The notes under the pieces were generated by a model. It searched no databases. It was given only the letters and a program-made list of their open reading frames with translations, and had not been told where the DNA came from. The position numbers and the translations under genes are program-made. DNA of 64,000 bases from Sipunculus nudus (lineage: Eukaryota > Annelida > Sipuncula > Golfingiida > Sipunculidae), in the NCBI GenBank assembly GCA_026874595.1, contig CM049306.1:16079019-16143018 (forward strand), in the 5' to 3' direction. Shown in pieces: positions 16,015 through 47,543 of the stretch; the first letter of the stretch is position 1, and every line of letters begins with the position of its first letter.

Positions 16015-16177
16015 GTAAACACTTTCTTATGTATAGTATAATACCATAGTTTTCCTATTATATTACAATAATATGCTAAAATCATGTTCCACATACTACT
16101 GTGGTCTGATAGTGGTTGATGTAGCTCATTTATCTGTAGTTGTAACCAACTTGAGGGAAGTCTTTTTTGTGACTAGT

Positions 16178-17342
16178 TTTTAGCTAAGCTGACTGTAAGT
16201 CATCTGAGCTGTAGCAATCACCCTTGTCCAGCGAACAGCTGGCCAGTTTTCCGGCCAGCCCTCCGTTAACAGGGCACAAATGGTAACTGCTAAACTTAGA
16301 AACTACTAACTGTACATCCAGGCAGGTCCTAGGCATATCTCCTTTGAAACCTGAAATTAGGTCATGGTGACCAATATTATGTGACCTATGGGCCAAAAAC
16401 ATGATTTGAGCACCCAGTCAGTCAACCAGAGCACAAATTGTATCCATTTAGCCCAGAATCTTCTAACGCAACATTCAGGGAGGTCCTGGGAAACTTTCCT
16501 CAGAAACAGGGTACTAGGTCACCCTGACCTATATTCTGTGACTTATAGGAAAAAGATGTCATATGAGCACCCAGAATGTAATATGGGTACATATAATATC
16601 TTTTAGGCCTAGAATCTTTTACCGCAACATCCAGGGAGGTTGTGGGCAAATCTCCTTGGAAACCTGAAATTAGGTAATGCTGACCTATAATCATTGACCT
16701 AAGGACCAAAAATATGATTTTGAGCACCAGAGGGGAGTCAGATTCTATCCATTAGGCCTAGAATATTCTTACGTTACATTCAAGGAGTTCCCTTGAGAAA
16801 TGTTTTTGCAAACATGATATTGGGTCACCATGACATATATTTTGCAACCTATAGGAAAAAGATGTCAAATGTGCACAGTGAATGCCAGATGGGCACAAAT
16901 CCTTCCTGTTACGCCTAGGATCATTTAACGCAACATCCAGGGAGTTCTGGGCAAATCTCCCGGGAAACCTGAAATATGGTCATGTTTCTGTGACCTACGG
17001 GGCTGAAAACATGATTTTGAGTACCAACTCAGTCAGACAGGCCACAAATTGTATCCCCTAAGCCTAGAATCTTTGATTTGTTTGATTTCTTGAATATCAT
17101 AATTTTCCATACTTTGCTGATTTGTTTTTAGGGGAAGGGGTTTCCTGGAGAATCCGAGCCCAATGAAATTTATTTCATGAACAATAATATGCGACATTCA
17201 TTCAGTACCTACCAGCTCATTTCAAAACTATTTATCATATAGGACCATGGATTTTTTCACGGGTGCATCTAGTTAATAATTAATACATGCATCATCTATA
17301 TGTCAAATTCAGCTGAGCATCATGGCCCATGGACCACTTGTT
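16178..17342 (+). mobile_element. H3b element, complete, with five tandem core units
   Basis: The 5' end TTTAGCTAAGCTGACTGTAA is followed by GTCATCTGAGCT, forming a 5' hairpin. The 3' end TTCAGCTGAGCATCATGG repeats the AGCTGA motif inverted and is followed by GGCCCATGGACC and ACTTGTT. Between them lie about five imperfect units of about 155 bp (landmark CATCCAGG near 16314, 16475, 16628, 16779, 16934). It is 1.16 kb, non-coding, in intron 2. Confidence 0.7.
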
Positions 17343-18565
17343 GACCTGCCAAATAATGTGTATGAGAAATACATTTTGCCAATTGTCTTAATGTAATAAT
17401 GTAATATCATTTTGGTTAATATGTTTAGGAAGTACTTAGCATGTACTTTTCAAGTTTCCATCACAAATCCTTTAAACAGACAGTGCCAAATTCCTGCAAG
17501 ATGCCTGTAGTATGATACCTGTATTGTTATGAAGCATTGTAATATCATTGTCTTTGTATTTCCACTTATCCTTGCTATATAGGTGTATATATTTGTGTTT
17601 AGACCATCGTTAGATGCTGTAAATATATCACATGTATTGTTATGATTATTTGTCATATAATTTCATATAATTTTCATATACTTTTTAATATTTTGTTTTA
17701 TTTTATTACAATAAATCTTTGTAATTCTGGTATTTATTTTCTCTGCTATTGAGTTTAAAACTAAACAAAGAAAGAAAAAAGCCAGATTTACAAGTTTAAA
17801 AGGAGTATATGACTGATGCTTTGAATGCAAGGCTGACACAGCTGATACGGACAAATATTGTAGAAACAATGCAGGACAATGCAGCCAGTACAGACCCAGG
17901 GTACACTGGATAGCTGAGCCAGACCCGTAAAAACCCATTAAAAGCTACAGTTTTATATACCTGGCAGTGTATTGCACAAAAGCAGATGAATCTTTAAATC
18001 TGCTTAATTACATGTGATGGCCCTAGTAAGGAGTAGAATACTAAAGTAGTGACAGTCTTCTCCAGCTGTTAGAAGGAATGATCTAGTGAATGTAAAATCT
18101 CCAGTATTGTCACTCATGAACACCTGGTCCTGTCTCAAGCACTGTGTGGGCGTTCAATCAGGGTACATGTTCTTAGCAGTGTAAAGTAAAGAAGTGTTTA
18201 TATGAAGAACCTGGTAATGTGGCACATCAATCTCTCAGCCATCACAGTACACCTGCCTAATTTCCTCTGTCCATTAACAAGGTACATGTGGTCATCTGTA
18301 AAAGCTTCATCTGTTAACTTTCTTGTATTCTTATATACAGAAATCAATTCCAGGCCAAAGTCAGTAATTTTTCTGAAGCAAAAGTTAGATTTTTCCTGAT
18401 TTGATGCATTCGGATTAGTCTGAATTAGCTGTTAACATTTCATCATATATTTTTACATATTATCAATGTTTATTTCCTGTTTAAATAAATGAGTGATAAA
18501 ATGTTTACAGCACTGTTTATATTTACAGACATGACTCCTTTTGAGATAAAATAGACCATATATTT
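17343..18565. other. Intronic sequence between elements
   Basis: No exon, RNA gene or shared repeat was recognised in this part of intron 2. Confidence 0.4.
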
Positions 18566-19938
18566 GTATCCGCCAAAACAGAGTTTTGCAGATACTATGT
18601 TTTCAGCCCACCGCCGCCGCTGCCGCCACGTAGGTGTCTGGAGAACTCCTCCATAACCGCTAGGCGGATTTCTACGAAACCCAGATTATGTTCGGGTCAC
18701 ATATGAACGTGATTTTGTTTTGACCTCTGACCTTTCTTCAGCGCTCTGGGTCCATCTGTGCGTCTGTTTTGACATATCTCAGGAACCGTTTGACCAATCA
18801 GGAAAAAAAATTTGCACAAAGTAAGCCCTTTGATAGCTCTATAACATACATAAAAATGGTGGCACCACCTGCAACCATTTTTGCACAGCGTCCATCTGTT
18901 CATCTGCCTTGGGATAAAATCACTCATATCTCTGCTTTGGTTGGACTTATCCACCTGAAATTTTGCATGTGTATACATCCTGGACAGCTTTCTTGATTTT
19001 ATGACAGGTGGCGCCACCTACATTCATGTTTACACTGCAGACATCCAAGCTCATAACTCGGGACTGTTTGACCGATTGGGCCAAAATTTTGTATGTGTAT
19101 AGATCTCACATAGCTCTTTATCATAAGCAAAACTGGTGTCACCTGCAACCATTTTTGCACAGCATCCGTCTGTTTGTCTGCTGTGGGATAAAATCACTCA
19201 TATCTCTGCACTGGTTTGACTTACCTGCCTAAAATTTTGCATGTTTATACATCTTGGATAGCTTTCTGGATTCTGTGGCAGGCATATATCTCAGGAACCA
19301 TTTGACGGATTGGGCCAAAAATTTGCAAGTGTATAGATCTCACATAGCTCTTTATCATAAGCAAAACTGGTGTCCCCTGCAACCTTTTTTGCACAGCGTC
19401 CGTCTGTTTGTCTGCTGTGGGATAAAATCACTCATATCTCGGCAGTGGTTTGACTTTTCTGCCAAAATTTTGCATGTTTAGACATCTTGGATAGCTTTCT
19501 TGATTTTATGACAGGTGGCACCACCTATATTCACATTTACGTGGCAGACATCCAAGCTTATATCTCGGGAACCGTTTGACCGATTGGGACAAAATTTTGC
19601 ATGTGTATAGATCCCACATAGCTCTCTTTTATAGGCAAAACTGGTGGTACCACCTGAACCATTTTTGCACAGAGTCCGTCTGTTTGTCTGCCGTGGGATA
19701 AAATCACTCATATCTCCGCAGTGGTTTAACTTTTTGCATATGTATACAACTTTGACAGTTTTCTGGATTTTGTGGTAGGTGGCGCAACCTACATACACAT
19801 TTCGGTTGCAGAAATCCATGCTAATATGCAACACACCTCACTCTATTTCCCTTGCCACTCAATCCATGCCTCTCTTCACCCGTCCCACTCTGATTTCGGC
19901 TGATACACGTAGTCACTTGTCGACTACCCGTATTCTAG
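18566..19938 (+). mobile_element. H1 element, complete copy
   Basis: Starts GTATCCGCCAAAACAGAG with the second hairpin arm TTTTGCAGATAC, then a CCGCCGCCGCTGCC stretch. Four to five 139-bp half-units follow, each with TTTGAC, ATTTTGCATGT and a GGTGGCGCCACCT-like dyad. The 3' end has GGCTGATAC (inverted relative to the 5' GTATCCGC), the hairpin GTAGTC...GACTAC and CCGTATTCTAG ending at 19938. A hairpin about 11 bases before a CTAG end is the Helitron 3' signature. It is non-coding and an H3 element abuts its end. Confidence 0.75.
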
Positions 19939-19984
19939 TTTTTAGCTCAGCTGACTATAAGTCATCTGAGCTATAGTCGTGGTC

Positions 19985-20044
19985 CATTGTCCGTCGTCCG
20001 TCCGTCTGTCCGTCCGTCCGTCCGTCCGTCCGTCCGTCCGTCCG
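19985..20044. repeat. (CCGT)n microsatellite in H3
   Basis: About fourteen near-perfect TCCG units follow the H3 5' hairpin. The H3 copy at 59412-59466 carries the same tract with interruptions, so it belongs to the element. Confidence 0.9.
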
Positions 20045-20851
20045 TAGATGTGGCACGTTTTGAAACCCTAAGACCTAGGAATCCAAAATTCAGCATAATG
20101 TTAGATGTCCCCAAGATCTCCTACCAAGCCGAAAACTGGGTCTTTGCGGCTTCGTTCCTTTGAGAAATTAAGGAAAAACCTCAATTTTTTATTAAAATCC
20201 TATTTTCACACTTCAGGACTGCCTAATATCAAAACCACTCATCTGTTTTTCCTCATATTTACCATAAATATTCCTTCATATAGTTCCTATGTACATGCCA
20301 GAAATTAAGTCTCTTAAGTATAAATTCTTTAAGTTATGGGCCCAAACATAATGGACTTTGTAAAAAATCAGGAAAAATATTTACTCACTTAACATGAAAA
20401 ATTTTGAAACTAGAGTCTATTTTCCCAAGTATATAACTATGTTTAATTAAGATTCAATTGCTTACCCAAAATTAGATCTGAATTTTGTAAATTTTTTAAG
20501 TAATTAGCATAAAAATAAAATCAGTACCTTAAATTTTGCCCAACTTTGACCATGGCACGTTTTTTTCCTGTAAGTACCATTGATTTAATTTTCACAGCAT
20601 GTAAACATAAATATTTAATTTGTTTAAATCTGAAATTTGGAAATAAAAGCTTGAAAATTAAGCTAGTTATTGATTTTTTTCTTGAGGCTCTATTGTAGTC
20701 ATTTGCTTTGATTAGAGGTTACAGATGCAGGGTCCCACTCCAGGTCACTGGAAGTCAGCTATGCCAGGGTTTCTGATTTGTTACAGTCACTGGGGGAGAT
20801 CCCCTGCTGTGACAGGTGTACAGTTATTCTCATATCACCACCCCAATATCA

Positions 20852-20869
20852 CCCCCCCCCCCCCCCCCC
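20852..20869. repeat. Poly-C tract
   Basis: An uninterrupted run of 18 C within the H3 copy. Confidence 0.9.
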
Positions 20870-21881
20870 GCAAACCCAACCCACCAAGTGTTATGCAGTA
20901 TTGTTATTGTTTTCACTGTATCTCCTTAATTGTAATGCTGTTTCCACTCTGATATGCAAAAACTTTCCTTGAAAAAGTAATTCAAGGTGTAATCCAGAAG
21001 ATGCAATGTTGTGTAATGTAGCATTTTAAAAGAAATCATTTTTCCTTTAAATGATTTTACCAATCATAATGGAACCCATCAGTATGCTTAAATTATGATA
21101 AAATATGAAGCATATTATGGATAAATAAAGGCACAATTAAAAATTGTGAAATCTAAATCAAGTATTTTTTTTAGATATTTATTGTTTTGCAGATTTAAAA
21201 GATATATTTTTGTGGTAAAAAATAAATAAACATTTGTATGCATGATGTGGTGTTATCTGACAAGATTGAGATTTATGATGATGCAATTGAGAATTATGAA
21301 TCAACTTTTATATTCAGATATATATGTTATATTGAAAATGTATAGAAATATAAACTTAAATAAAAAAAAAATTGATGTGATAAAAAAATGAGGATTTATT
21401 ACAAACATTTGTTCATTATTTTCCTGCATCAGCAGAATTTGAGATCAGGCTTTGGCGGCTTTGTTTGCCATGTTTTATGTTGTTAATTAGTTATATTTCA
21501 ACTGTATACATTTCATAAAAAAAAAACGTATATTTAATAATATATATTATACAAAAAAAAAGATTCGATTGAACAAATGTTTAAACTACTGAAATGTCAA
21601 CAGTTAATTGAAAAGCCAACTAATGATCATGGTAATTGTACAGATCATTTGTTCACAAACTGCTCACATGCTTCAGTTTCAACATTAGGAAACACATGGT
21701 CAGGTCACAAAATATTATTTGCAACAATTTCTTGCTCATCAATACAAACCAATCATATAAACCAACCATGGCCTTTATTACCTCTTCCTCTTACACTTTA
21801 TCTCCATTTGATATTATTTTAGATTTTTACCTTCAAGGTTAACGTCAGCTGAGCACAGTGACCCATAGGTCCCTTGTTTTC

Positions 21882-22890
21882 ATTATATTCAGCATTCAGA
21901 CAAACATTAAGCATTCCTATATGCATGAACCATATCTGTTGTATTGCATAGTTAATGCAACGTCAACATATACCAGGGATCGTAATACTGATCAATACGA
22001 AGGTGAGGTCGGGAATGTCCCTTCCCATATCACGTACAGTTACTCCAGAACACAGAAACTGTACCAAGAAATCTTTACAGAATCATTTACACCTATTTAT
22101 GATGCATTTTATGTTGTAGTTTAATTACCAATATTTAAAGTTACCACTCCATGACAGTACTTTGGAATTTATACCTTTCCAACAGAAAGGCATTAATACA
22201 GGTTTGCCTTTCATCAGAAAAAATGCCTTTCCGCTAAAGATGCCTCCTATCATCATATCAAACATTAAGTCACATTCCGTTTAGTGGTAAGCCTGACCTG
22301 CATCCTTACATGCAATCCTTCATGCACACTTGCATGCTAAAAGAACTGAATGTTTTCAACAGTAACACTGTAATATCAGAAACATGATTGTCCAGTGAAA
22401 AAAAAATTTAGGAAAATATAGGAGATAAGGGCCTAAATGTTGTGAAAAATAAGAAATTTTAGACCATTTATATAGGAAAATATAGGAAATACAGGGAGTT
22501 GCTGGAAGACCGTCTGTAGTTTTGTATCATGTGTGTTCCTACTTATCAGCTACTAATGTGGAAAAGATCTAGGTGTTGACCTTTCCAATGGATCAATACA
22601 AAAAGAAAAATGCCTTTCCATGCACATGTTTGCCTGTCTGAGACAGGCTAAAAGGCGTTATTTCGACCCCTGCAAACAATCAGTTATTTATCTCATAGAG
22701 TGATGTAAATATAAATAATTACATGTCCATTTAAGCTTTGGACAACATTGTCAGAATATTAATATTCTGAACTTGAAAAAAAGATTTTACAGCACTTGAC
22801 TAAGGAGCTTAATGTCATTGGTAAAGTGCATGTACATAGAATTTAATCATCAATCCATGATCACTGTAATTTAATTAAGCAAAATTAAAA
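21882..22890. other. Intronic sequence between elements
   Basis: No gene recognised. The plus-strand open frame at 21858-22124 begins inside the H3 terminus and has no domain similarity. Confidence 0.4.
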
Positions 22891-24199
22891 TTTTTAGCTA
22901 AACTGACTATCTGAGGTAACAGTCATCTGAGGTAATAAAGCGATCACTTTTTATGTGTCATCCAGAGGACTAGCCATCTAATTATCTGTTAACAGGGCAC
23001 AAATCTAAACAGTTAGGCCCAGGAAGTTCAAACTTCACATGCTGACAGGTCATGATAGATTCTCTGTGTAAACTGAAAAGACAGTCACTGTGACTTAGCT
23101 GTATTCTCCAAGTTATGTTGTAAAAATATCGGAATTTATACATCAGTCTTTTAACAAGGCACAAATCATAACTGCAAGACCCTCGAAGGTTAAATTTCAC
23201 ATGCAGACAGAAACTGTGGAAATTAAAAAAATACAGGTCACTGTGACCCTGCATTGTGGAGAGAAAAACACGAAATAAAGCCATATTACTTCATTTTTCA
23301 TATAACTTCACAAGCACCACAATTCATAACAGCAAGTCCCAGAAAGTTCAAACTTCACATGCTCAAAGGTCCAGTTAGGTCCTCTGGGTAATATGTAGGT
23401 CACAATGACCCATATTCTTCAAATTATTGAGTAAAAACTCCAGAAGCCATCATCTGTCATCAACAGGTTACAGATCATAACCACAAGGCCCAGTACGTTT
23501 AAACTTCACGTGCTAACTGGTCAAGATAGGGCTGTTATTGGAAAATATAAGTAGGTCACTGTGACCTATATTTTCAGTGTGATTGAACAAAATACATCAT
23601 CAGGAAGTTTAAATTGGGTGGGGTTGCATCTGCATATTTTCAAACCCATTCTAGCTGACTGAGTATGAATTGAATTGAATTATTCTATGGGCTATGAGTG
23701 CCAGATTTTAAGTGCTTTTCCACTTCTTCCATGATTACAGTGTTTGATTTCCTGTGTGTGCTTGAAATATATATTGTTTGTTACAAACTATTTGATCTAT
23801 TTCCTGTTGGTATATTACACTTTTTCTTAATGGTATGCACATTTAGGCTGCAGTTAGCACTCCTTATCTAGGACTTCAGTATACTGCAGCGATTATGCAG
23901 TTTGGCTGTATTTTTACAATGTCACCTATTACTATGCACAGTTGTGCACAGATTGAATGTAAGACCCCCTAGAGTTCTAATGTTTAGAATGACAGACTAC
24001 AGCTATCAGTCTTAGAAGGGCACAAATGGTATAACCCTTAGAACTAGAATGTAAACACTTTTTAATATACAGACATGTTCTGATAAGCTCTTCTTACAAT
24101 TCCAAATCAGGTAACTTATGACCTGCATTTATGTGAGCACTATGGCCAAAAGTAGTGTGTCAGGTTCAGCAGAGTGTCTTGGTCCATGGGCCACTTGTT
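22891..24199 (+). mobile_element. H3b element, second copy
   Basis: Starts TTTTTAGCTAAACTGACTAT with CAGTCATCTGAGG as second arm, and ends GTTCAGCAGAGTGTCTTGG, TCCATGGGCCACTTGTT. The interior has repeated units headed AACAGGGCACAAAT with GTCACTGTGACC-type phrases (about 22990-23600). It is diverged from the copy at 16178 but has the same layout. No coding capacity. Confidence 0.65.
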
Positions 24200-24461
24200 A
24201 ATTTTATTTTATATCTGCGAAAGTCCAGGTTGTGCATGGACTTATTATTTAGTACACTTGAACTACCTATGTTACTTCCTTGAGAAGTTCTGGTGCGTAC
24301 TGAAGGTCAATTTTAATAATTTTCAACATATCTTGTTCCAAGCAATAGAAAATATATACAAATTTTGCTTTAAATATATGCTGTAAATAATATAATCTAA
24401 CATAACATTTTTATTGTCATGGCATTTTTTTGACAGCATTAACTGATTATGTTGCCAATAG

Positions 24462-25182
24462 TGTTATGGAGTAAGAAAGGGTGTATATGTGACTTAACAC
24501 ATATTTAAAGGAATATTTCAATATTTCATTAATTAAGATCTAAAATCATTCAGAAACAATAAAAATCAATTACGGTTTCAGTCTGTTCTGATATTCAGAC
24601 AGAGCCAAAGGAAATTAATGGTTCATCAGACGACCAAGTATCTAATGGAAATTCAGTATGTTTGTAGAGCCTAAATGTACTCTCACAAATTAGCTCTAAA
24701 TTGGTTTCTATGATGAGGCAGGCAGATTATGTTTATAGAGTTTGGAAATAGCATTGTAGGTCAGTCTATAACTGGATGCATGTCAGGTCAGACTTGGGAT
24801 TTTCCGTAGCACTTTTGTCGAATCAGATCTCACGAAAGTTAGGTAGAACACTTACAACTCTGATGTAATTGTGACCTACTTTGAGTCATCCAATAAGGTT
24901 TAGCTTTTATGACGAAATGCAGAAATATGGATATGTACATCTCATATGTCACGTGAAAGCTCTGTAACAAAACTATCTGTAGTGCGCGCTGAGAGTCAGA
25001 GAGAGAGAGAGAGGGACCATGTCTAGCTGGGCACTGCAGGGCCTCAGCAAAGACTGGCCCAGACTCTGTCCTGTGAATAAAGGCTTCTATCATCAAATTG
25101 GTCTTGGAACATTTGTCAGCCACCAACATCACCTACTGCTTGTGATACAGTGTGGGGACATCCTCAACCCCACATTGTATCA
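24462..25182 (+). repeat. 5' LTR
   Basis: Identical by eye to the 3' LTR over its first about 650 bases, then differing in a short patch (about 25114-25135), then similar again to the end. Contains a GA-rich microsatellite at 24998-25014. Confidence 0.8.
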
Positions 25183-27941
25183 TAATGGTGGAGACCGGGT
25201 CTCGTATCATTATGGTTGATGAACCGGGATTCACTTCCAGCACATCAGCGCCAGAAAAACCGACAATCCTTACAGCTGGAGTGAAGAATGAAGATCCCCT
25301 CTCGCAACCACAGGTGCCATTGACTGGTCTACCAACCCATGCATTGGAACTACAACCCAGGTACTGGATCACAGCCTAACATCAAGAATGTCATCTCTTC
25401 TGCTGAAGGTATCAAACTTTGCTATGAACTTTCTCTTCAAACTTTAACTTGGCTGCAGTTTCTCAGTGCTCTGCTTGAGAGGATCAAAGACTTCTCTTAT
25501 ATCTTTAAACCAAAAGAACACTGTACATCAGCATATTGCTTTAACAGTGACTTCAAGTTCTTAAAATGACATTTTTCGCTAAAAAACAAGTGCTGTGATA
25601 TCTCAACCTGAGATCATCATTGTTCCTGACCAGCCACATCAAAAAAATCCATATCGGGACAAGCCAGCTTCGGGCCTATGTCAACAATACTCCTGGCCAT
25701 ACCACGTGCACTGTGTTTTGTGTGACAACAAGTTCCTTGCTATGTTCCTGCAACTACTAGAAGCAGATTTGCTGTTATACCGCTATCTTCTGCATCACCT
25801 TCCATACCATGACTCCAGTGAGAAAAAGAAGCCAAATCAGCAGAGAAGACCACAGAAGACCTAAAGATGACAAGATTCCTGAGGTAATGAAAACAAAACC
25901 AGAGACTCTGAATTTTAAATACCCAATGTAAAATTTGGGGCATTACATAATATTTTGCATGTATATGTTGTAAACAAAAAAAATATGTATGTAGTACAAT
26001 ATAACTTTCTCTTATTGATGTGTCATAATTGTAACATCATATAATTTAATGTCTCTGTCTAATGGATAGGTTAGGACCAGGCTTATCACACCCTACTAAA
26101 CAGTAGAGAACTATCAATGTTAGATTTGATACAGTAATGTCTATCTTAGACGTTAATATGCAATGTCACAAATGACTATATTGATTTAAATACAATAATT
26201 CCTAGAGTAGAGCAATATGCAAAACCATCAGCATGTTAGCATTCATTTATCTTGAGATTTTCTCATGTGTTGTTCCATACCAAATCAATGGTTATCATAA
26301 TGCTCTCTTGGCTATAAATTTAATGGAATGGTAGCACATTGTGTAACCAATGCACAATGCGATGCTTATTTTCAATTGTTTCGTCACAGTTTCGTCCTCA
26401 AACACGGGTTCTTGGGAAGCCCCCCAATATACAGGGAATTGGACAAACTGGGGAGTGTGATGACTCCAAAAATCAATAATGCACCGACCTGTGGTCACAT
26501 TATTGCCTAAAACAAGGGTTTGATTTGGTTAACCTCATTAATAGCTGGAAATGCCAGGCAAGATATGTAGGTTAGCCCAGGAATTCTTCTCATAGGAATT
26601 CACATTTACGCGTACTATGACAGACATGTTTCATGAGCAAATGCATTCTGGTCATGCATTCATGATACTGATAACCCATAAACCAAAATGTGGAGTGACA
26701 AGGATTTCAAGCATTAACATTTTTCATTTAATTTAATCATCACTCTACAGATGTATGTTTGATCTTACACATAAATAGCATGCAATAAAATTACCATCAA
26801 AATCCTATAGGTATAGATCGATACATGCACCTGTCAGGGAATTATTTCATTATCATCACATTTTCACACATTTCGCCTTGTTCATGCACAAAAATTGGTA
26901 ATCAATGGGAATATATGTACAACATTCCTCTATCATTAGGAATGACCTCATTCTGTCATGTACTTATCCGCTGGTAAGGTACACCAGTTGTGTTATGCTA
27001 AAGGATTAGTAAATCAACCTTCCATTATTCACAATTCAACTTGTCCCAATGGCAAGTATGAAAGCCAAGATGTATTTTGAATCATTGGTACTGATCAACA
27101 CACAGAGCAGATTGTCATGTACCTATGTATATGTTAAACTCTTAGGCACAAGAGTATATAAACTTTGTCAGATTAGGAATTCATGATCACTTTTTCCATA
27201 GGAATTGTATGTTTAGCTACAGGCATTGCTAATTCACTTGTTATAATTGGTAATGCATATTGCTGTTCGACAGAACATCTTTCTGTAACATAACTTACTG
27301 TATGCTAGAATGGTTCACATACTTTGAATTATTCCATTGCTTACACGGTATGCATAGTACTTGTATATTCTAGCTGTGCATTCATTATGAACATGATGCT
27401 ATTATCATATCTATTAAGATATTTATTTATTAATTCTATTTAGATGTGTCATACTTACATCTGAAGTTTTAATGCTTATATTAGGATGTCAAATAATGTC
27501 ATCATGGTTGCGATGTTGTTCCTGATTCCTTATACATCAGCATTTTATCTTCTAGATATTGTTTAGGATTGTCCATTCACAAAAAACAAAAAGAAATTCT
27601 GTGTTAGTTAGCATATATGTGTAGCTATATATATATATTTCCTTTCTCAGCTTATTAAGCTTTAGCTTAGGCGTTGTTGTACTGCTACATAATTTTAAAA
27701 CATGCACTACCTTATTCCTTACACTGTTACATCTGGAAATGTGACATATTCATGTATTCCACATCTATATTGATATGTGTAATTCCATCAAAACACACAT
27801 CAGTGATGTAATACTTAAGGCATATATCCATCACATTTTGTATTTCTGTCATCTGTATCCCAGTTATATTTCTTGCAATAACTAAATTTTCTCCGACTTA
27901 GCCCATGAGGCCGGAGCCTCATTCTGAATACCAGAGGGATA

Positions 27942-28661
27942 TGTTATGGAGTAAGAAAGGGTGTATATGTGACTTAACACATATTTAAAGGAATATTTCA
28001 ATATTTCATTAATTAAGATCTAAAATCATTCAGAAACAATAAAAATCAATTACGGTTTCAGTCTGTTCTGATATTCAGACAGAGCCAAAGGAAATTAATG
28101 GTTCATCAGACGACCAAGTATCTAATGGAAATTCAGTATGTTTGTAGAGCCTAAATGTACTCTCACAAATTAGCTCTAAATTGGTTTCTATGATGAGGCA
28201 GGCAGATTATGTTTATAGAGTTTGGAAATAGCATTGTAGGTCAGTCTATAACTGGATGCATGTCAGGTCAGACTTGGGATTTTCCGTAGCACTTTTGTCG
28301 AATCAGATCTCACGAAAGTTAGGTAGAACACTTACAACTCTGATGTAATTGTGACCTACTTTGAGTCATCCAATAAGGTTTAGCTTTTATGACGAAATGC
28401 AGAAATATGGATATGTACATCTCATATGTCACGTGAAAGCTCTGTAACAAAACTATCTGTAGTGCGCGCTGAGAGTCAGAGAGAGAGAGAGAGGGACCAT
28501 GTCTAGCTGGGCACTGCAGGGCCTCAGCAAAGACTGGCCCAGACTCTGTCCTGTGAATAAAGGCTTCTATCATCAAATTGGTCTTGGAACATTGTCTGCC
28601 AGCACATGAGACACTGCTTGTGATACAGTGTGGGGACATTCCCCGACCCCACATTGTATCA
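27942..28661 (+). repeat. 3' LTR
   Basis: Same start (TGTTATGGAG) and end (TTGTATCA) as the 5' LTR, offset by 3480 bases until a two-base then one-base length change near the end. Confidence 0.8.
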
Positions 28662-28665
28662 ATAG

Positions 28666-30615
28666 CAACACAATGTATAAGCTGACCTAGTCACTGTTGT
28701 GCCTGTTCCTGTCCACACCATCTAATGTTTTCATTGTATAATAGAATTAGTTCTGAAATTGAATAGTAGATGACAGAAACATGTCTTCAATCAGGCCTGG
28801 AGAACTGTATCATATATTAGACAGTGCTGTCAGGACCACCTGTCTAGTCTGTGTTGCTGAATTAAAAGTTCTTTGAAGTGAACTGTTGGAACTGAGGATC
28901 ATCACAGGTTTGAACAGCTGGGATGTCTTCCTGTAAACATGACAAGGACACACCTCTATTTATGTACTTATATGCAACTCTAAGGGACTTGCCTTCTTCA
29001 TCAGTGTAACAGTGTGGAGAAATATAGGTATCACCCTTTTCTGCCGAAAACAATTTGTCAAAGCTTATAGCCATCGTTATAATTTATTGATGTTATGAAG
29101 GTAAATATTTGCTTTTTGGTTTGCATATTTTACAGTAAGATCTACGGAATTTCTCTTAAGGCAAATTAATGGCTTAAGCAATCAGATATTTTTTAAATAT
29201 TTTTAGTCAGGATGTAATATATACAAGGACCAATGTGGTTTGACTATGCTGGTCATGTCAGTGAGGCCACAATATCTTGCTTTTATTTTCTGAAATTTAC
29301 AGCTGTTCTGAAACACATGACATAAGCAAACGTGTTTTTAATGGTGCTGTATGTGTTACATAATAAGGCTGTGAAGCTGATTTAAAAGATGAAGGCTTGC
29401 CCATAAGTTTTCAACCTCAGGTTTGGTAGATGCCAATTTTAAAGATAAAATATCTGCTATCTGATGCCTTTGTAGGACATTTATGTATTTTATGATCTGT
29501 CTGTGGAGTCAGTATATATGACAAAGGACACTGCACCATCCTGCAGCTGCCTGGTGAAGTTTTCATGAGTTCTACAGCAGTGTTTTAGTTGTGGAACTGT
29601 CAGATACACACAGGCCCTGTCTCGGCACTGTTTTAAAGACTAGCTGCCAAACACACACCAGAAGAGAAATAGAACTTTTCCTGCATGAACTGAGTTTATT
29701 ACATGGACCAGCAGTTTGGAATTGGATTTGGAGTGAAGGACAATTCTTAGTGTCTGTGCCCTGTAGGGATCTGAGCTGCATAAAAAAAAGGCATGCCTTT
29801 TGTTGGAAGGACATTTGTCTGCTCACAATGGCACAGAATTATCAAAAGTTCTTATTGGAAAAATTAAATTTTCATTTGGAATATTATTTTTTTTAAATTA
29901 AAAGCAGGCTATTCATCTATGATGATGGAGTAATTGTATAAATTATTGCTGTAATTTGGTGAGTCAACCTTGTTAACTTTGATAGGACTTATATCATCAT
30001 TGCTTTTTAATAATAGCAGTTTTTGCTTGCTGTCCTACTAAAACAGTAAAAGATATCACCAAAGAACAATCTCTATTCAGTCACACAATCCAATTCCTTC
30101 TAAATTTCAGTAATTAAAGTGGGGATATATATTGTGTAAAAATTCCATAACAATTCTTTTATAATAATGAAGACACCAGATATTTCTGTTTCAAATTGTC
30201 ATCATTATAAAACCAAAGAATAGGACAATATTTCTTCACAAAGAATTCATATCCTTCCTGAAAAGTTGAAGTATAATCTGACTCTATAAAATGAATATAA
30301 ACATGAACAACTAACACAATTGTATTTGTAGTGTTAACAAGTGATTTGGAAGTTTAAATGTGTTAATTTCCATTTTTCTCTATAATGCTCCCCCCCCCCT
30401 CCCCCCCCCCCCCCCCTTTGATTTGTACTCAGTTTGCTTTAACTCAGTAGAGCTGTATACAGCAGTCCTGCGGTGTCTAGTTTCTGACCATTCATGTGGC
30501 TTTCTCTGCCACTTTTTTTTCAGCCCAAAACAGTTGCCAATACATTGGTCCCTTTCTATATATTTAATAAATCTGTGTGGAAGTAGAGAATCAGGCTTCT
30601 TTGAAGGGATTATCA
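28666..30615. other. Intronic sequence
   Basis: No exon or repeat family recognised. Paired open frames at 29572-29896 on both strands lack splice sites and domain similarity. A C/T tract lies at 30390-30416. Confidence 0.4.
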
Positions 30616-30940
30616 ACAGTGATCATGAACATATATTGTATACACAGTGATCATGAACATATATTGTATACACAGTGATCATGAACATATATTGTATACA
30701 CAGTGATCATGAACATATATTGTATACACAGTGATCATAACAATTATTGTATACACAGTGATCATGGACATATATTGTATACACTGTGATCATGGACATA
30801 TATTGTATAGACAGTGATCATGGACATATATTGTATACACAGTGATCATGGACATATATTGTATACACAGTGATCATGGACATATATTGTATACACAGTG
30901 ATCATGGACATATATTGTATACACAGTGATCATGGACACT
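30616..30940. repeat. 28-bp minisatellite, about 11 copies
   Basis: The unit contains CAGTGATCATG, ATATATTG and GTATAC. The first four units read CATGAACAT, the fifth is altered, and the later ones read CATGGACAT, so two subtypes are arranged in blocks. Confidence 0.9.
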
Positions 30941-32513
30941 GGAGTCTGTGTGTACGTGCATGTGTACGGGCTAATGCATGGGCAAGTTTCGAAACCAGGC
31001 ACAACTTAGGTTGCAGATGAGGTAGTTTTCAGAGGTCTTAGTTGATGGGGCATCTTATTCCCTAGGGTTTCATATTTGTGAATATTTTACATTCATGAAT
31101 ATCACGAAATTAAAACCCTTGCTAATAAAAAGGCAACCACAGTATTGTTATGCAAATAGAATAGAAGACCATGTTTAAAGTCTTAATACACATTCTTTTC
31201 AGAATGCACTCAATAAATGTAAGGCATATGTCTTTGGACATGTCTTCCACATTTTCCTCCTGTTTGTTCATAGTCAGAAACAGGTGGACAATTAACAGAT
31301 ATCCTCATCAGGATGCTCAAAGTCTTTTGGGGCAAGTGAGAATGCAAACTGGTTGTTCATTGATACTCATGCTTGAAAAGACACTCCCAAATGTTGTGGA
31401 AAATTTAGATTGTTAGGCCAAAAAAAGTCACAATCATTACTAAAAGTTGGTAAATATCACTCATTAAAGAGGACATGTTTATACTGAAAATTTGTTATCC
31501 TCATCGTTTTTCACATGGTGAGAATGTTGGAAATTTATAAGCACTGTGATGATCAGCCATACTTCAAGACCATTTGCTCTTATGGGTTTCCTGGGTATAT
31601 GCCCCTTTAAAGAAACTGATGATAAATTATAATAAAGTTCATATGTTTCAGGACCTAAATGTAACAAGTGCACTATGTTGAAGCGAAAGGGTATCACAAT
31701 ATTTTTTTATTTTAGTTTCAAGTCCTTAAGTTTATACTTTATTGCAATCATTAAATGTACACCCCAGGAACAAGTCAAGTATTTATTTTTACCTTTGCCC
31801 TATGCCTGTCTTGTATTCTTTTGACTTCCTGACATATGTTGGAACTTCATAGAAAAATTCTGAAGATACTCAAAATAACAAGGTAGCATGTCATGTTAAA
31901 ACATAGTCATTTTGATAAAGGTCAAGGCTTTAACTGCAGTTAAGGGAATAACTGGATGTCAGCCATGTTCAGCTGTCACCAAATTTCTGGGAGATCTAAT
32001 GTGAAATCTATATATCTCATTTTATATTTGACTCCACCCAGTATTTCTACAAACATTTCAGAACAGAAAGTGTTTCTCAGGGATGTGTATTCTAAGTTTT
32101 GTTTAGTTTTAAGCTTTTATTTATCATTAGAGCATTTATTTATCATTAGCGTATGAACTTATCTAAACATTTCACAACTTGGCATGCAGGAAAACATATT
32201 TTAGAATATTTTTCTTGACAAATCTTCTAGGATAGTTTATATTAATGTTCTACATTGTATATATTATGCACTAATCCCTAGTGCTGTTTCGAATTTCAAA
32301 TATGTCATTTTCGAAAAATTCAATACTGTATTTCAGAATTGTTTCAGCAGAATTGTTGTATGCTTATAACACAGTCAAAACCCATGTGGAAGACTGCTGA
32401 TATCTAAAGAGAGGATATTATTTCAGTGCATCTCTTTGGAATTCATCTGTTTGGCATTTCATGTAGGGGTTTTCATCATTTTTCCTTGGGTAAATTTTAC
32501 CTGTTTTCTACAG
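30941..32513. other. Intronic sequence before exon C
   Basis: No gene or shared repeat recognised. Ends in the exon C acceptor. Confidence 0.4.
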
Positions 32514-32690
32514 AAGTAGGTCGAAAGAGGCACAAACATACACAAGCGACAATGGTTCAAGCTCCCGATGCCACAAATATTGAGATGAATAATCTGAGTC
32601 CATTTACTACTTATGATGTGACCATATGGGCAAGGACAGGAGCAGGCCGAGGTCCTCCACACACTGTCAGAGTCACCACACAGCCAAATG
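32514..32690 (+). CDS. Exon C: second half of the second FN3 domain
   Basis: The acceptor is ctgttttctacag and the donor gtaagttg, phase 1 on both sides. It encodes 59 residues: a basic stretch GRKRHKHTQ, then NLSPFTTYDVTIWARTGAG and a closing VRVTTQPN. The L.P.T.YDV pattern with conserved Tyr and the following G strand are typical FN3. The frame is also open upstream of the acceptor, so an ORF start at 32426 is an artefact of read-through into the intron. The donor is the first of a tandem array of near-identical donors (see the 46-bp repeat). In-frame read-through past it meets TGA within a few codons. Confidence 0.85.
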
Positions 32691-32905
32691 GTAAGTTGTC
32701 CGCATGACACATTCAGAATCAGCACACATTCAAATGGTAAGTTGTGTGCATGACACATTCAAATACATCACACAGCCAATCAGTAAGTTGTCTGAATAAC
32801 TCATTCAAAAGCATCACACAGTCAAATGGTTAGCTGTCTCTATATAAAATTACAACATAGCCTAAATGGTAAGTTGTCTGCATGGCACATCCAAAACCAT
32901 CTCAT
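32674..32905 (+). repeat. 46-bp minisatellite whose unit includes the exon C splice donor
   Basis: Five successive units start with CACACAGCCAAATG-like sequence and continue GTAAGTTGTCTGCATGACAC. Candidate donors lie at 32691, 32737, 32783, 32829 (GTTAGC) and 32869. The spacing is exactly 46 for the first four and 40 for the last. The first unit overlaps the last 17 bases of exon C. Confidence 0.85.
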
Positions 32906-33000
32906 AGATAACTCTTTTCAAGTTGTATGCTATGGTCAAAAAGAACTAACAGCAGAACTGTGAAGTCTGTTGTACCTGTTGTGCTGCAAACAGAAATCCT

Positions 33001-33857
33001 CCACATGGCTAGCTGTTTACCATGTTTAGTCAAAGCCTTCACACAGCTGTCTTCCATGCTTAACAAAAGCCTTCACTTAGCTGTCTAACAATGCTTAGAC
33101 AAAGCCTCCACACAGCTGTCTTCTATGCTTAGTGAAGCCCCAACACAGCTGCATGTCAACCCTGCATAGTCCAAGGCTCCTGACAGCTGTCTACCCAGCT
33201 TAGTCAGAGCCTCCACACAGCTGTCGATCATGCTTAGTCAAAGCCTCCACACAGCTGTCTACCATGCATAGTACAAGCCTCCTCACAGCTGTTTACCATG
33301 CTTAGTCCAAGCCTCTACACAACTGTCTACCATGCTTAGTCAAAGCCTCCACACAGCTGTCTATCTTGCTCAACAAAACCCAACATACAACTGTGTACTA
33401 TGCTTAGTCAAAGCCTCCAAACAGCTGCCGTCCAAGCCTCCCTGCAGCTGCCTTCCATGCTTAAACAAAGCCTCCATACAGCTGTCTACCCTGTTTTGTC
33501 AGAGCCTCCATACAGCTTTCTAACCTGTTATGTCAGGGTCTCCACACAGCCGTCTACCATGCTTAGTCAAAGCCTCAACATAGCTGTCTCTCCTGCTTAG
33601 TCAGAGCTTTCACACAACTGTCTACCATGCTTAACCAAACCCTCTACACAGCTGTCTATTATGCTTAGTCAAAGCCTCCATACAGCTGTCTACCCTGCTT
33701 AATCAGAGCCTCCACACAGCTGTCTACCATGCTTAGTCTAAGCCTCCACACAGCTGTCTACCATGTTTAACCAAGACTTCCACACAGCTGTCTACCATAG
33801 TCAAAGTCTCCACACAGCTGTTATCATGCTAAACCAAAGCTTCCACACCTCCAGCTG
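33001..33857. repeat. 34-bp minisatellite, about 25 copies
   Basis: The unit is close to CCATGCTTAGTCAAAGCC plus TCCACACAGCTGTCTA, repeated with substitutions and small length changes. Plus-strand open frames over it are repeat artefacts. Confidence 0.85.
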
Positions 33858-34443
33858 ATTTGTTTGCCAAATGTCAACATGGAAACCACCAAAAGCCAAG
33901 CTTAGATTAGCTTCTGTACTAGCAGTGGGCTGAGAGAACTGTATTTTAGAATTGAAGTTTCACCATATGTCCTGATTTACAAGATAGTGCAGATTTGTAA
34001 TTTAAACATATAAAACAGTTTCACTGAGAATTAAAAAAAAATCACACAATGATTATAGATACCTAAAATGCTTGTTGTAGTATTTACTCACCCACTGCAT
34101 TTTACTGTTATCTCAGAAAACAAGCCACTTCAATTTCATCTGCTCAACTTACCATTATCCCAGGTACTTGTTTAATAAATGCAATACTTGGTATTGTATT
34201 CATGAGAATGAGTTAATTATCCTCGTACCTCCAAGCCTGATCTTCTTTCTATAGTGAAAGAAAATTGTCATGATTTCATATTGGAAAGGTGCAATTGGAA
34301 TTCTGCTCACACTAATAATATTGTAAAAACTTGATACATGCATACATTTTACCAGTTACATGCCCTTGTGTCATTCTGAATCAATGGCAGGAATAAGTCT
34401 TTCACTAATATACAGTTTTTGATGTGTTCTCACATTAACACAT

Positions 34444-34988
34444 TAAAAATTTGATAAACAGTTGAATTATTAAACTGGTAAAATGTGATCATCATCATAA
34501 TAGGAATTCACAGGTGAAGAAATGGCTCAGGGGTAAAGCACAGGACTCAATGTTAGGAGATTGTGAGTTCAAATCTCAGCTGAAGTGGTCAGCTCCCATC
34601 CAGGGTGAGCGCTCTGCAGGCTTAATGGGAAGGCCTTGCCAAATGGCCATGTTTCACTCACAAACAAGTGCACCCTTCGCAGGTTCCTCAGTAGTATGAC
34701 CCAGCAATGAGGACAATCACACAACAAGATGTGATGCCCACAGATGCAGTAGTCACAGGGCCTGGTTAACACCAGGATATAAAATGAGAGAAAGCATGTG
34801 GTACTGCCCTATCATGTAGTTTAAAACTGGAATGGAATTCTGCAGATGTTCATTCACTTAGAATTAAGCTAGCATTAAAACGTGGAGGTGGTTACCTCCA
34901 TCAACAAAATAGTAAAACAAAAAAATTTGATAAATGGTTGATTAATTAAGACTGGTACAATGTGATCCTCATCATAACAGGAATTCAC
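34444..34988. repeat. About 68-bp direct repeats flanking the SINE
   Basis: 34444-34512 and 34921-34990 share AAAAATTTGATAAA, ACTGGTA, AATGTGATC, ATCATCATAA and GGAATTCACAG with few changes. They are offset by 477 bases and lie on either side of the SINE. Confidence 0.75.
34514..34830 (+). mobile_element. tRNA-derived SINE
   Basis: The head contains an A-box-like TGGCTCAGGGGTAAAGC (34522-34538) and, about 30 bases on, a B-box-like GTGAGTTCAAATCTCAG (34562-34578), the internal RNA polymerase III promoter layout of tRNA-derived SINEs. A unique body of about 230 bp follows. The 3' end is not sharply defined. It lies in intron 3. Confidence 0.65.
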
Positions 34989-36268: not shown

Positions 36269-36388
36269 TGCCAGAGCTTCCAAAGTTTAGTGCCATAAGT
36301 ATCAACGGTAACCAAGTGAATGTCTCATGGCTACCATCAGATGGTGGCCCCCTGAAGCACACTTACACTGTAGAATACCGTGAGCTGG
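36269..36388 (+). CDS. Exon D: first half of the third FN3 domain
   Basis: The exon is preceded by a T-rich tract ending ttttccag and followed by gtaagtac, phase 1 on both sides. It encodes 40 residues beginning VPELPKFSAISINGN, with the B strand QVNVSWLPSDGG (core Trp and an NVS sequon) and the C strand YTVEYREL. The G-rich turn and EYREL motif resemble the last FN3 domains of L1/neuroglian proteins. The size (120 bp) and phase match exon B exactly, as expected from domain duplication. Confidence 0.85.
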
Positions 36389-37033: not shown

Positions 37034-38219
37034 GTATCCGCCAAAACAGAATTTTGCGGATACTATGTTTTCAGTCAGACACTGCAGCTGCCGCCGCCAC
37101 CACTTAGGTTTCCAGAGAACTCCTGCATAACCACTGGGCGGAATTTTTTAAAATTCAGAATTATAATCAGGTCACATGTGAACTGCAGCACCCTCATTTT
37201 TGGTTGACCTCTGACCTTTCCTCTCTGCCTAGTGTCCATTTGTGCGTCTTTTTCCACACATAAACCCACATATCTCGGGACCGTTTGACATATCAGGCTA
37301 AAAATTTTGCACAAATGTAGCCCTTGGAAAGCTTTATAACAAATGCTAAAAATGGTGGCGCCACCTGCAACCATTTTTGCACAGTGTCCATCTGTTCATC
37401 TGCCTTGGGATAAAATGACTCATATCTCTGCATTGGTTAGACTTATCCAACTGAAATTTTGCATATGTATACATCCTGGACAGCTTTCATGATTTTATGA
37501 CAGGTGGTGCAACCTTCCTTCATGTTAATGCTGCAGATATCCAAGCTCATATCTCAGGAACCGTTTGACTGATTTGGCCAAAATTTTGTGTGTGTATAGA
37601 TATCACATAGATCTTTATCATAGGCAAAACTGGTGGCGCCAACTGCAAGTATTTTTGCATGGGGTCCATCTGTTCATCTGCCTCAGAATAAAATCACTCA
37701 TATCTCAGCAGTGGTTTGACTTATCTACCTGAAATTTTGCATGTTTATACATCCTTAACAGCTTTCTTGATTTTGTGACAGGTGGCACCACCTTCATTCA
37801 AGTTTACACTGCAGACATCCAAGCTCATCTCGGGGGACCGTTTGACCGATTGGGCCAAAATTTTGCATAGGTATAGATCTCATATATCTCTTAATCATAC
37901 ACAAAATTGGTGGCACCACCTGCCACCATTTTTTCACAGTGTCCTTCTGTTTGTCTGCTGTGGGATTAAATCACTCATAAACAAGTAGTGGTTCGACTGA
38001 TGTGCCTAAAATTATGCATATGTATAAAACTTGGACAGCTTTCTGGATTTTGTGGTAGGTGACGCAACCTACATACACATTTCCGCTGCAGACATCCATG
38101 CTAAAATGCAACACACCTCACTCTATTTCTCCTTGCCACTCAATCCATGCCTCACTTTACCCGTCCCACTCTGATTTCAGCAGATACAAGTAGTTGTTTG
38201 TCGACTACCTGTATTCTAG
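37034..38219 (+). mobile_element. H1 element, complete copy
   Basis: GTATCCGCCAAAACAGAATT with arm TTTTGCGGATAC forms a perfect 5' hairpin (8-bp outer arms GTATCCGC/GCGGATAC). Core half-units with TTTGAC, AATTTTGCATATG and GGTGGCGCCACCT follow. The 3' end has CAGCAGATAC, GTAGTT...GACTAC and CTGTATTCTAG ending at 38219. It is 1186 bp, flanked by TA repeats and TTT on the left and T on the right. Confidence 0.8.
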
Positions 38220-40090: not shown

Positions 40091-40429
40091 TTTTTGCATA
40101 TTTTTTTCCCTCACATTTTTCCTGGACAACTGATGATCTTGACATGTAAGGTCAAATAGGATGAAATGTAGGCTTGTGAATCCCATAATTTTGAGGTTGT
40201 GCAATTTCCTCAAGTGTAATACACATGGTTATGTGTGTCTCTATCAGACTCCGCCAGAGTCGATTTACTGTGTAACGTCATATGGCTGATTAAATGTGTC
40301 AAGCCAGTCCATCTTTTTGCTTCTGTAAATCTGGACTTGCTGTGTATAATGTTAAATGCTTATTTGTCATGGTAGAGCATGAAAAACCATGTTGAAACAG
40401 TCAGGAAAGTTACTAATACTAGGTAAACT

Positions 40430-42240
40430 CCAAGTTCAGATGTGCTAAATATAGTACCACTAAAACTTGCAAATACTGTGGCTTACAGCATCCTATGAAA
40501 AAAAGAAATTTGTCCTGCGTGGGGCAGGAAGTTCAATCTATGCAAGAAGGACAACCATTTTGCCAAAATTTTCCCAGGCAAAAGAGACCAAAAGCCTGTA
40601 CATCAGATTGGGACTCGGAAACGGAAAGTGACTCTGAGAAAGAATCTCCACCACAGTGGTTGAATAAAGTAACTGAGGAAAACCCGCTAACTAACTCACT
40701 TAGAGACATTAAGTGTCATACGTTAGTCAATGGCAAAAATGTTACATTCCAGATAGATACTGGACCATCAGTCAACATATTGCCAGTTTGCTTTGCCAAG
40801 GAATACCAGCCAGAAACCCCTACCCTGAAAATGTGGAACGATACTGTCACAGGAATCTTTGAACAAATGCAAAATGTATTTAGTGACACTATTGGCAAAC
40901 TCTCAGGGAAACATCACCTACAAGTCAATAAGGATGTTATTCCTGTTGTAATGCCATTGCGCCGTGTCTCTTTATCTGGAGGCCTAAACTGAAAGCTGAA
41001 CTACAACAACTGGTCAGCCTAGGAGTGATAACGCCAGTCAGTAAACCAACCCCATTGGTGAGCCAGATGGTAATATAAATAAAGAAAATCAGCCAACTGC
41101 CCGTGTGTTCAGATCCACGTGAACTCAACTAATGGTTTATATGTGAACATTATACATTACCTTTACTGAAGAAATCCTTCAAGAAATAGGCACCTCAACT
41201 GTGATCTCCAAAGCAGACCTCGCAGTGGGATATTGGCACATAGAGCTGGATGACATGTCTAGCCTGCTTACCATGTTCCAAACATGTTAAGGCAGATATA
41301 GATGGTTACATTTACCATTCCGGACAAGTGTATCAGCTGAAATATTGCAAAGGAAGCTCATTGAACCCCTTGAAGGCCTCAAAGGAGTTGTATGTATAGC
41401 GGATAACATTGTGATACATGGAAAGACAATGGAAGATCACAATGCCAACTTTGAGAAATACCTGAGGTGCTTTTTTAAGAAAAGGGAATCAAGCTGAATC
41501 AAGAAAAACTGAGCTAAGGTTTCCACAAATCATGTAACATGGGCCATATCATCTTTAAATAAGGGCCGTCAAAGTGACCCAACTAAAGTGGACGCAATTA
41601 ATACTTGAATCCTGCCTCTAAACAACATTGAACAGCTTAGAAGGTATCTAGGCATGGTGAACTACCTCACAAAGTACCTACCAGGATTAACCACGACAAT
41701 AGAACCAATGTGAAATCTTCTCAAAAAAGATATGCAATGGTAATGGTCTTCTTCACAACATGCTGCCTTTGAGGAAGTAAAGATGTTAATTGCCAATGCA
41801 CCCATCCTCCAGGTTTATGACCCCAGCAAAGAACTTATCATTGAGAATGAAGCATCAGAATATGGTCAGCCATGTTCCAAGAAGGTAAACCTGTAGCTTA
41901 AGCTAGCAGATTTAATCTGATACTGAACGCTGCGATGCTCAGAGAGAAAAAGAGATGTCGGCAGTGTCCTTCGGCCTTGAGAAATTCCATCGCTACACTT
42001 ATGGCTGCAGAGTGAAAATAATCATAGACCATAAACCACTGGTCTCAATCAGCAGTAAACCACTTGCAACTTAACTGCACCAAGACATCTCCAAAATCTG
42101 CTCTTAAGAATGCAACAATATAACTTTGTGCTAAAAATAAGACAATAAGGCCATACCTGTTTGGGATGTACTCTCCAGAACACCACTGACATTAAAGTTA
42201 TTTGACCCTACAACAGCAAGAGGACATACTTGGTGTGTCA
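40430..42240 (+). mobile_element. Degenerate Gypsy-type LTR retrotransposon (gag end to RNase H)
   Basis: The order is that of Gypsy elements. A zinc-knuckle-like CKYCGLQHPMKK lies near 40470, and an acidic linker (SDWDSETESDSE) follows. A retropepsin block FQIDTGPSVNILP has its DTG codons at 40756-40764. RT start motifs (LQQLVSLGVITPV near 41005, a CSDPRELN-like block near 41100) lie in a shifted frame. The catalytic region near 41392-41410 reads IADN where an active enzyme has Y/IADD. A connection segment (RYLGMVNYL near 41645) and RNase H-type IIIDHKPL near 42015 follow. Several frameshifts and stops make it inactive. No LTRs or integrase were found. Confidence 0.85.
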
Positions 42241-43130: not shown

Positions 43131-43292
43131 GCAAGGTGACATGGAAGACCATGCTGACTGCCCAGGGTGATACATGGATTCTTGTGCCTGACGTTAAGCC
43201 TGGCCTCTCGTATGAAGTCAGAATCAAGGTCAATAATGGTCACAGGACAGCCACAAGCCGCCCTTTAAATGTCACTTTAAAACCTCTCCTCG
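43131..43292 (+). CDS. Exon E: second half of the third FN3 domain
   Basis: The acceptor is catggtttgcag and the donor gtaagtag, phase 1 on both sides. The 54 residues begin GKVTWKTMLTAQGDTW and continue with VPDVKPGLSYEVRIKVNNG and PLNVTLKPLL. The PG.SYEVRI pattern is the F strand of FN3, and NVT is a glycosylation sequon. A repeat element (H2 copy c) begins about 15 bp after the end of the exon, leaving almost no original intron behind the donor consensus. Confidence 0.85.
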
Positions 43293-47429: not shown

Positions 47430-47543
47430 GCCCAACCCTAGTGGATTTCAAGGTCATGTATATCGGGGACTCTTCTCTTGGACTTATTATTGATGATCCA
47501 AAAAATTTGTTCACAACATATTATATCCAGTATAAAAAAATGG
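47430..47543 (+). CDS. Exon F: first half of the fourth FN3 domain, lacking the core Trp
   Basis: The acceptor is ttccttctgccag and the donor gtaagtgt, phase 1 on both sides. It encodes 38 residues starting GPTLVDFKVMYIGDSS and ending YYIQYKKM. Length, phase and the final Y.IQYKK strand match the first halves in exons B and D. The B-strand Trp present in those exons (VEW, VSW) is replaced here: the corresponding stretch reads SLGLIIDDP. This is therefore a divergent FN3 half-domain. The call rests on position, phase and strand pattern more than on identity. Confidence 0.8.

What the first reader, a model, noticed from the sequence alone, without database searches (positions are those of the whole stretch)
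32674..32905. A minisatellite that copies a splice donor five times
The 46-bp unit begins in the last 17 bases of exon C and contains the donor AATG|GTAAGTTG. Donor-like sites lie at 32691, 32737, 32783, 32829 and 32869, three of them almost identical to the real one. Since 46 is not a multiple of 3, and in-frame read-through from 32691 meets TGA within a few codons, use of a downstream copy would truncate the protein after the second FN3 domain or trigger decay. The array could act as a splice-site buffer or as a copy-number-variable switch. Its spread from the exon edge into the intron is visible directly; the function is inference.
Basis: partly seen in the sequence, partly recalled or inferred. 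Interest (0 to 1): 0.75.

Follow-up and report, generated by a model that had tools for sequence, protein, structure and literature searches.

The report
Old repeat copying a splice donor
A 46-base piece spanning the end of an exon and the start of its intron has been copied several times in a row, leaving competing "cut here" signals whose use would give only a truncated product; it is real but most likely a harmless relic, and the human gene ABCA7 is already known to carry the same kind of arrangement.

Summary
A 46-bp unit (24 exonic + 22 intronic bases, not 17 exonic) repeats from 32667: four full copies, a 40-bp fifth and a decayed sixth without a donor. GTs lie at 32691, 32737, 32783, 32829, 32869. 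Two of four downstream copies match the real donor over ATG|GTAAGTTG, one keeps GTAAGTTG, one is weak. By a donor matrix from this genome the five rank 1-3, 5 and 8 among GTs of exon C and its intron.

32691 is the likely real donor: six predicted exons join in one frame. Every downstream donor gives ...TTQPNGKLSA-stop, so a "buffer" cannot rescue the protein. Copies are 54-87% identical to the exonic one, which disfavours a copy-number switch. Conservation of the donor block is suggestive but depends on the block chosen. Donor-bearing arrays match near the control frequency genome-wide.

Human ABCA7 intron 18 is a direct precedent: a VNTR including the exon's donor, with one-unit retention giving a premature stop. 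Best reading: an old, near-neutral exon-edge minisatellite whose decoys leak slightly into decay-prone transcripts. Use of any site is untested: no RNA data.

The parts
32514..32690 (+). Exon C: second half of a fibronectin type III domain, phase 1 at both ends
   Evidence: Pfam fn3 E=1.3e-4 on the ORF, 22.6 bits, below the 25-bit cut-off; joins predicted exons 14894-15122, 15895-16014, 36269-36388, 43131-43292 and 47430-47543 into one open frame
32691..32692 (+). Most likely the true splice donor (ATG|GTAAGTTG)
   Evidence: Of the five array donors the only one that keeps the frame open into 36269; U1 duplex -9.1 kcal/mol
32667..32712 (+). Repeat copy 1: 24 exonic + 22 intronic bases, the presumed parent
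32713..32758 (+). Copy 2, 87% identical to copy 1; donor at 32737 identical over ATGGTAAGTTG
32759..32804 (+). Copy 3, 76%; donor at 32783 is TCA|GTAAGTTG
32805..32850 (+). Copy 4, 70%; weak donor at 32829 (GTTAGCTG)
32851..32890 (+). Copy 5, 40 bp (6 bases missing), 75%; donor at 32869 identical over ATGGTAAGTTG
32891..32939 (+). Copy 6, decayed (54%), donor lost
32705..32707 (+). In-frame TGA met by read-through past 32691; common to all four downstream-donor products
36269..36388 (+). Next exon (first half of the next FN3 domain), long pyrimidine tract at its acceptor
   Evidence: Pfam fn3 E=7.2e-4, below cut-off
33011..33848 (+). Neighbouring 34-bp minisatellite in the same intron (TRF rows of 12.1 and 12.5 copies); descent from the 46-bp unit not shown
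   Evidence: relation tests

Best explanation
A tandem duplication across the 3' edge of an FN3-coding exon copied the last ~24 exonic and first ~22 intronic bases, splice donor included, into the intron. Repetition and decay left five donor-bearing copies and a sixth without one. The first copy remains the working donor because it alone keeps the reading frame; the others are decoy donors. Most likely the array is an old, near-neutral relic: the decoys can pair with U1 and are used at a low rate, and those transcripts carry an early stop and are probably destroyed by nonsense-mediated decay. Shown: the repeat, donor quality by sequence, the frame, the stop. Inferred: order of duplications, low use, decay, neutrality.
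For: 46-bp repeat with donors. Identity to the exonic copy mostly falls with distance: 87, 76, 70, 75, 54% for copies 2-6. The exonic part ends an FN3-like ORF and the six-exon chain stays open only with 32691 among the five array donors, so the exon is taken as the source. Decoys look like real donors: two at the 90th percentile, the others at the 53rd and 17th, of 30 unique inferred donors of this genome. RNA not unusually structured (z +0.56), no Rfam match. Triple-GGTAAGT patterns match 3754 times genome-wide against 3314 for the reversed-pattern control (matches, not arrays), so nothing marks donor arrays as favoured or purged. Precedent with measured use: ABCA7 one-unit retention, about 2% as I read the paper's numbers; stop-containing transcripts rise under cycloheximide.
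Against: The donor block GTAAGTTG keeps more identity than the rest of the unit: 2 of 32 against 39 of 146 mismatches in copies 2-5, Fisher p 0.007; with copy 6 included 3 of 40 against 59 of 184, p 0.0007. This could be constraint. But the block was chosen after looking, copy 6 needs a gap placed beside it, -3..+5 gives p 0.105 (0.067 with copy 6), and sliding blocks starting at -3 rank only 12th (9 columns) and 7th (11 columns) of 46. Also, by the recalled rule that the intron-proximal of two equal donors is favoured, downstream copies should be used heavily, which would be costly unless something restrains them.
Confidence: 0.7

Rival explanations
1. Regulated unproductive splicing: the decoys form a poison exon extension that lowers expression of this FN3 gene in some tissues, set by SR proteins (SRSF1 type) and perhaps by an RBFOX-type protein at GCATG sites that start at intron position +12 of the three strong donors.
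For: Two decoys are as strong as the real donor and all four yield the same stop; GCATG at 32702, 32748 and 32880, one after each strong donor; GTAAGTTG retained in three of the four downstream donor-bearing copies, with mismatches rarer in that block (p 0.007, or 0.0007 with copy 6).
Against: GCATG was noticed afterwards, is copied with the unit, and occurs 76 times on the + strand of the window; the motif's meaning is recalled; the conservation signal depends on the block chosen; no transcripts.
Confidence: 0.12
2. Copy-number-variable switch: alleles differ in repeat number and so in splicing, as in ABCA7.
For: The arrangement resembles the ABCA7 VNTR, whose length affects exon 19 skipping.
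Against: The six copies are only 52-87% alike pairwise, unlike hypervariable arrays; in ABCA7 one-unit retention did not change with length; one assembly only, with one match to the locus.
Confidence: 0.06
3. Splice-site buffer: spare donors rescue splicing if the first is lost.
For: Identical donor sequence at 32737 and 32869.
Against: Each of the four downstream donors includes TGA at 32705-32707, so there is no rescue of the protein beyond this FN3 domain.
Confidence: 0.02
4. Chance placement: a minisatellite of independent origin whose edge overlaps the exon.
For: Minisatellites are dense here; about a 5-10% chance over six donors.
Confidence: 0.1

Closest known systems
ABCA7 intron 18 VNTR (human; PMC5954066, passages and section 21 read)
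   Same: Tandem repeat next to an exon that includes its donor; use of the donor one unit downstream retains one unit and gives a premature stop
   Different: 25-bp unit whose first two bases are the donor GT, 23.7 repeats in the reference, known to vary in length; here 46 bp with 24 exonic bases, five to six diverged copies, another gene, no polymorphism or RNA data
Tandem / competing alternative 5' splice sites (PMC2423196, passages read)
   Same: More than one donor at an exon end, out-of-frame use predicted to give decay targets
   Different: The passages seen deal mainly with donors four bases apart; here spacing is 46, 46, 46 and 40 and the sites arose by tandem copying
[quoted passage not shown]
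   Same: Tandem duplication that copies splice signals
   Different: There an exonic duplication creates a new intron; here copies lie inside an existing intron and no new intron is indicated
Other minisatellites of this genome that carry GGTAAGT (L048, L049)
   Same: Tandem arrays with 45- and 58-bp units and donor-like motifs
   Different: The 180 nt before their first GTAAGT hold stops in all three frames, though decayed units run further upstream so the true edge was not fixed; this one starts on an open exon

Membership tests
Minisatellite | Tandem head-to-tail copies of a unit of about 10-100 bp | tested here: met
Exon-edge repeat of the ABCA7 kind | Array includes the exon's own splice donor | tested here: met
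   32691 lies in copy 1 and is the only in-frame donor of the array; by sequence, not by transcripts
Exon-edge repeat of the ABCA7 kind | A downstream unit carries a usable-looking donor whose use gives a premature stop | tested here: met
   (by sequence only)
Exon-edge repeat of the ABCA7 kind | A downstream donor is actually used | not testable with these tools
   no RNA data
VNTR | Copy number varies among individuals | not testable with these tools
   one assembly only; divergent copies make it less likely
Intron gain by tandem duplication | A new intron bounded by duplicated AG|GT sites | not tested
   copies 1, 3 and 4 have AG 7 nt before the donor, but no pyrimidine tract was seen by eye; the frame uses the existing intron only

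The most novel reading that the evidence does not exclude
The array is a maintained set of decoy donors: U1 (and possibly an RBFOX-type protein at the GCATG that follows each strong donor) loads on several copies, and the balance between the first and the later copies tunes how much of the FN3-gene mRNA is destroyed.
Probability: 0.1. Interest if true: 0.65.

Novelty: new member of a known kind. Interest (0 to 1): 0.33.

Why it matters
It is a natural experiment in donor choice: one exon end followed by two donors identical to it over 11 bases, 46 and 178 nt downstream, plus weaker ones, where only the first gives a full protein. Junction counts would show how a cell ignores equally good downstream donors, and would test whether the ABCA7 type of repeat acts likewise in another gene and genome. 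If the decoys are silent and neutral, it shows how little donor duplication costs.

Tried and rejected
Descent of the adjacent 34-bp array from the 46-bp unit by a 12-bp deletion removing the donor (46-12=34; CACACAGCTGTCT looks like a join): attractive, but 219 of 1500 dinucleotide shuffles and 175 of 1500 window 34-mers score as well as the consensus pair (16.0); single copies score up to 21, still below the shuffle maximum of 32.5. Position 33002 is the best + strand match to the unit outside the array and the exon-edge stretch overlapping it (16.3), but the minus strand of the window reaches 17.2, and nhmmer gives E=4 there. Left open, not claimed.

Donor-specific conservation: suggestive, dependent on the block (numbers in the Against line). 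RNA structure: none beyond shuffles. Rfam: no match up to E=1 in 32400-33900. tRNA: none by ARAGORN.

Gene identity: unresolved. It does not look like an L1-family adhesion gene by the one test made: the two Bravo/FIGEY matches lie at C1:85.46M and on C5, not near the window. PDB hits (best 60 of 116 shown) are assorted FN3 proteins. A strict filter for phase-1 exons, not checked against the known exons, gave one doubtful segment in the next 30 kb and none in the preceding 20 kb.

Repeated donors elsewhere: 0 of 26 control FN3 donors (inferred from 30 loci; 4 gave none) and 0 of 5 other donors of this gene have an ungapped copy of the 46-mer above 55% within 400 bp downstream. Most control loci lie in a few genes, so this is not a genome-wide rate. 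One search lists only the first 100 or so of 3754 matches, all in the first 1.73 Mb of C1; three of those arrays were fetched, and L050 was array from end to end. Seven paralogue or FIGEY loci (L006-L012) were scanned for 40-mer repeats at offsets 30-79: best 31/40 in L008, at most 24/40 in the other six.

Literature: nine accepted queries, listings capped at 10-20 rows; ABCA7 was the only direct precedent among the titles seen. An earthworm metallothionein paper with first-intron minisatellites (PMC12783039, passages) showed no donor-copying array in the passages read. The library holds open-licence papers only.

Full report
WHAT IS THERE. The window lies in a 1.43-Gb genome in 153 contigs. 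Six predicted exons on the + strand (14894-15122, 15895-16014, 32514-32690, 36269-36388, 43131-43292, 47430-47543) join in a single open frame, all five junctions in phase 1. Of the six ORFs covering them, four match Pfam fn3, one above the cut-off (E=1.4e-7), the others at E=1.3e-4, 7.2e-4 and 0.069; the first and last match nothing. Half-domain exons explain low scores.

THE REPEAT. Across its 3' edge runs a 46-bp tandem repeat. Full copies start at 32667, 32713, 32759 and 32805; a fifth of 40 bp at 32851; a sixth, decayed, at 32891. Copy 1 holds 24 exonic and 22 intronic bases with the donor between. Identity to copy 1 is 87, 76, 70, 75 and 54% for copies 2 to 6, a rough decline with distance that fits growth from the exon edge, although conversion between neighbours would look alike. 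The 281-bp stretch found no second match in the genome (the tool warns that this does not prove rarity). A pair of AATGGTAAGTTGT 28-40 bases apart occurs once, here; the reversed control pattern occurs four times.

THE DONORS. U1 duplex energies are -9.1, -9.1, -5.6, -4.1 and -9.1 kcal/mol for 32691, 32737, 32783, 32829 and 32869 (U1 5' end recalled). A matrix from 30 unique inferred donors (26 from 30 FN3 loci, 5 of this gene without 32691, one duplicate removed) puts them at the 90th, 90th, 53rd, 17th and 90th percentile of those donors, and at ranks 1-3 (tied), 5 and 8 among GTs of exon C and its intron. The control donors were inferred from reading frames and U1 pairing, not from transcripts.

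CONSEQUENCE. Splicing at any of the four downstream sites inserts 46, 92, 138 or 178 nt and meets the same in-frame TGA at 32705-32707, giving ...TVRVTTQPNGKLSA-stop. The stop lies 29 to 161 nt before the altered junction and 149 to 281 nt before the next, so decay is expected by the usual 50-nt rule (recalled). This removes the buffer idea: a spare donor here cannot give the protein back. That 46 is not a multiple of 3 is beside the point, since the 138-nt product also stops.

IS IT MORE THAN A RELIC? The donor core GTAAGTTG differs in 2 of 32 cells in copies 2-5, the rest of the unit in 39 of 146 (Fisher p 0.007); with copy 6, 3 of 40 against 59 of 184 (p 0.0007). The result depends on the block chosen: -3..+7 gives p 0.024 (0.008 with copy 6), -3..+5 gives 0.105 (0.067), and sliding blocks starting at -3 rank 12th (9 columns) and 7th (11 columns) of 46. 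The exonic CACACAG part is also little changed. Three strong donors are each followed by GCATG at intron position +12 (32702, 32748, 32880), the core of the RBFOX motif as I recall it; this is copied with the unit and is a lead only. The RNA is not unusually structured.

GENOME BACKGROUND. Three GGTAAGT at 26-56-base gaps match 1172 times forward and 2582 times in reverse, against 2026 and 1288 for the reversed pattern. These are matches, many to one array, so they show only that donor-like arrays are about as common as the control. Two others (L048, L049) have stops in all three frames in the 180 nt before their first GTAAGT, though decayed units run further upstream. A rough estimate gives a 5-10% chance that another array edge falls on the last 24 bases of one of six exons. 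So the repeat is real, but an array touching an exon edge is not very improbable in such DNA.

PRECEDENT. [quoted passage not shown] the 25-bp retention shifts the frame. The frameshift isoforms are given as 14 and 2% 'respectively', which I read as 14% for the exon 18 cryptic acceptor and 2% for one-unit retention; cycloheximide raises the stop-containing transcripts, and retention did not vary with VNTR length (PMC5954066, passages and section 21 read). I take this as the best guide to what the present array does.

MECHANISM AND DOUBT. I hold that copy 1 does the work and the others leak. A tension remains: for equal donors the one nearer the 3' splice site is often favoured (recalled; the title of Krainer 1990, seen in the reference list of PMC8724738, says SF2 activates proximal sites; the title of PMC5585400, seen in a listing, says SRSF1 suppresses an intron-distal site). 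If that rule applied here the gene would mostly make truncated transcripts. Either exonic enhancers in exon C hold the choice, or the decoys are used more than I think. Only RNA data can say.

ORDINARY OR NOT. The arrangement is real and neat, belongs to a known kind, and gives a clear test of donor choice; nothing here shows a function.

Noticed in passing
30616-30938: 28-bp minisatellite, 11.6 copies, 96% matches, in the preceding intron (16015-32513): a better candidate for copy-number variation than the 46-bp array.
   Followed up: no
33011-33848: 34-bp minisatellite in the same intron, 34 = 46-12; its unit shares CACACAGC...TGTCT with the 46-bp unit, but descent is not statistically supported.
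   Followed up: partly
34500-34800: Sequence that reads by eye like a tRNA-derived SINE (box-like motifs recalled); ARAGORN finds no tRNA in the window. It holds the highest-scoring GT of this intron outside the array, 34605.
   Followed up: partly
40423-40989 and 41291-41494: ORFs that look like broken gag/protease and reverse-transcriptase pieces of an LTR retroelement (by eye).
   Followed up: no
12235-12471: Minus-strand ORF resembling a non-LTR reverse transcriptase fragment (by eye).
   Followed up: no
12767-13414, 37348-38102, 62662-64000: Tandem repeats with a 277-278-bp unit at three places in the window; at least the last two look like the same unit, and the last is 95% alike and runs off the window.
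   Followed up: no
L050, G000:C1:1729000-1732200: 61-bp array filling the whole 3.2-kb piece, 52.5 copies at 96%, with GGTAAGTTC in nearly every unit on the minus strand; its edge was not reached.
   Followed up: partly
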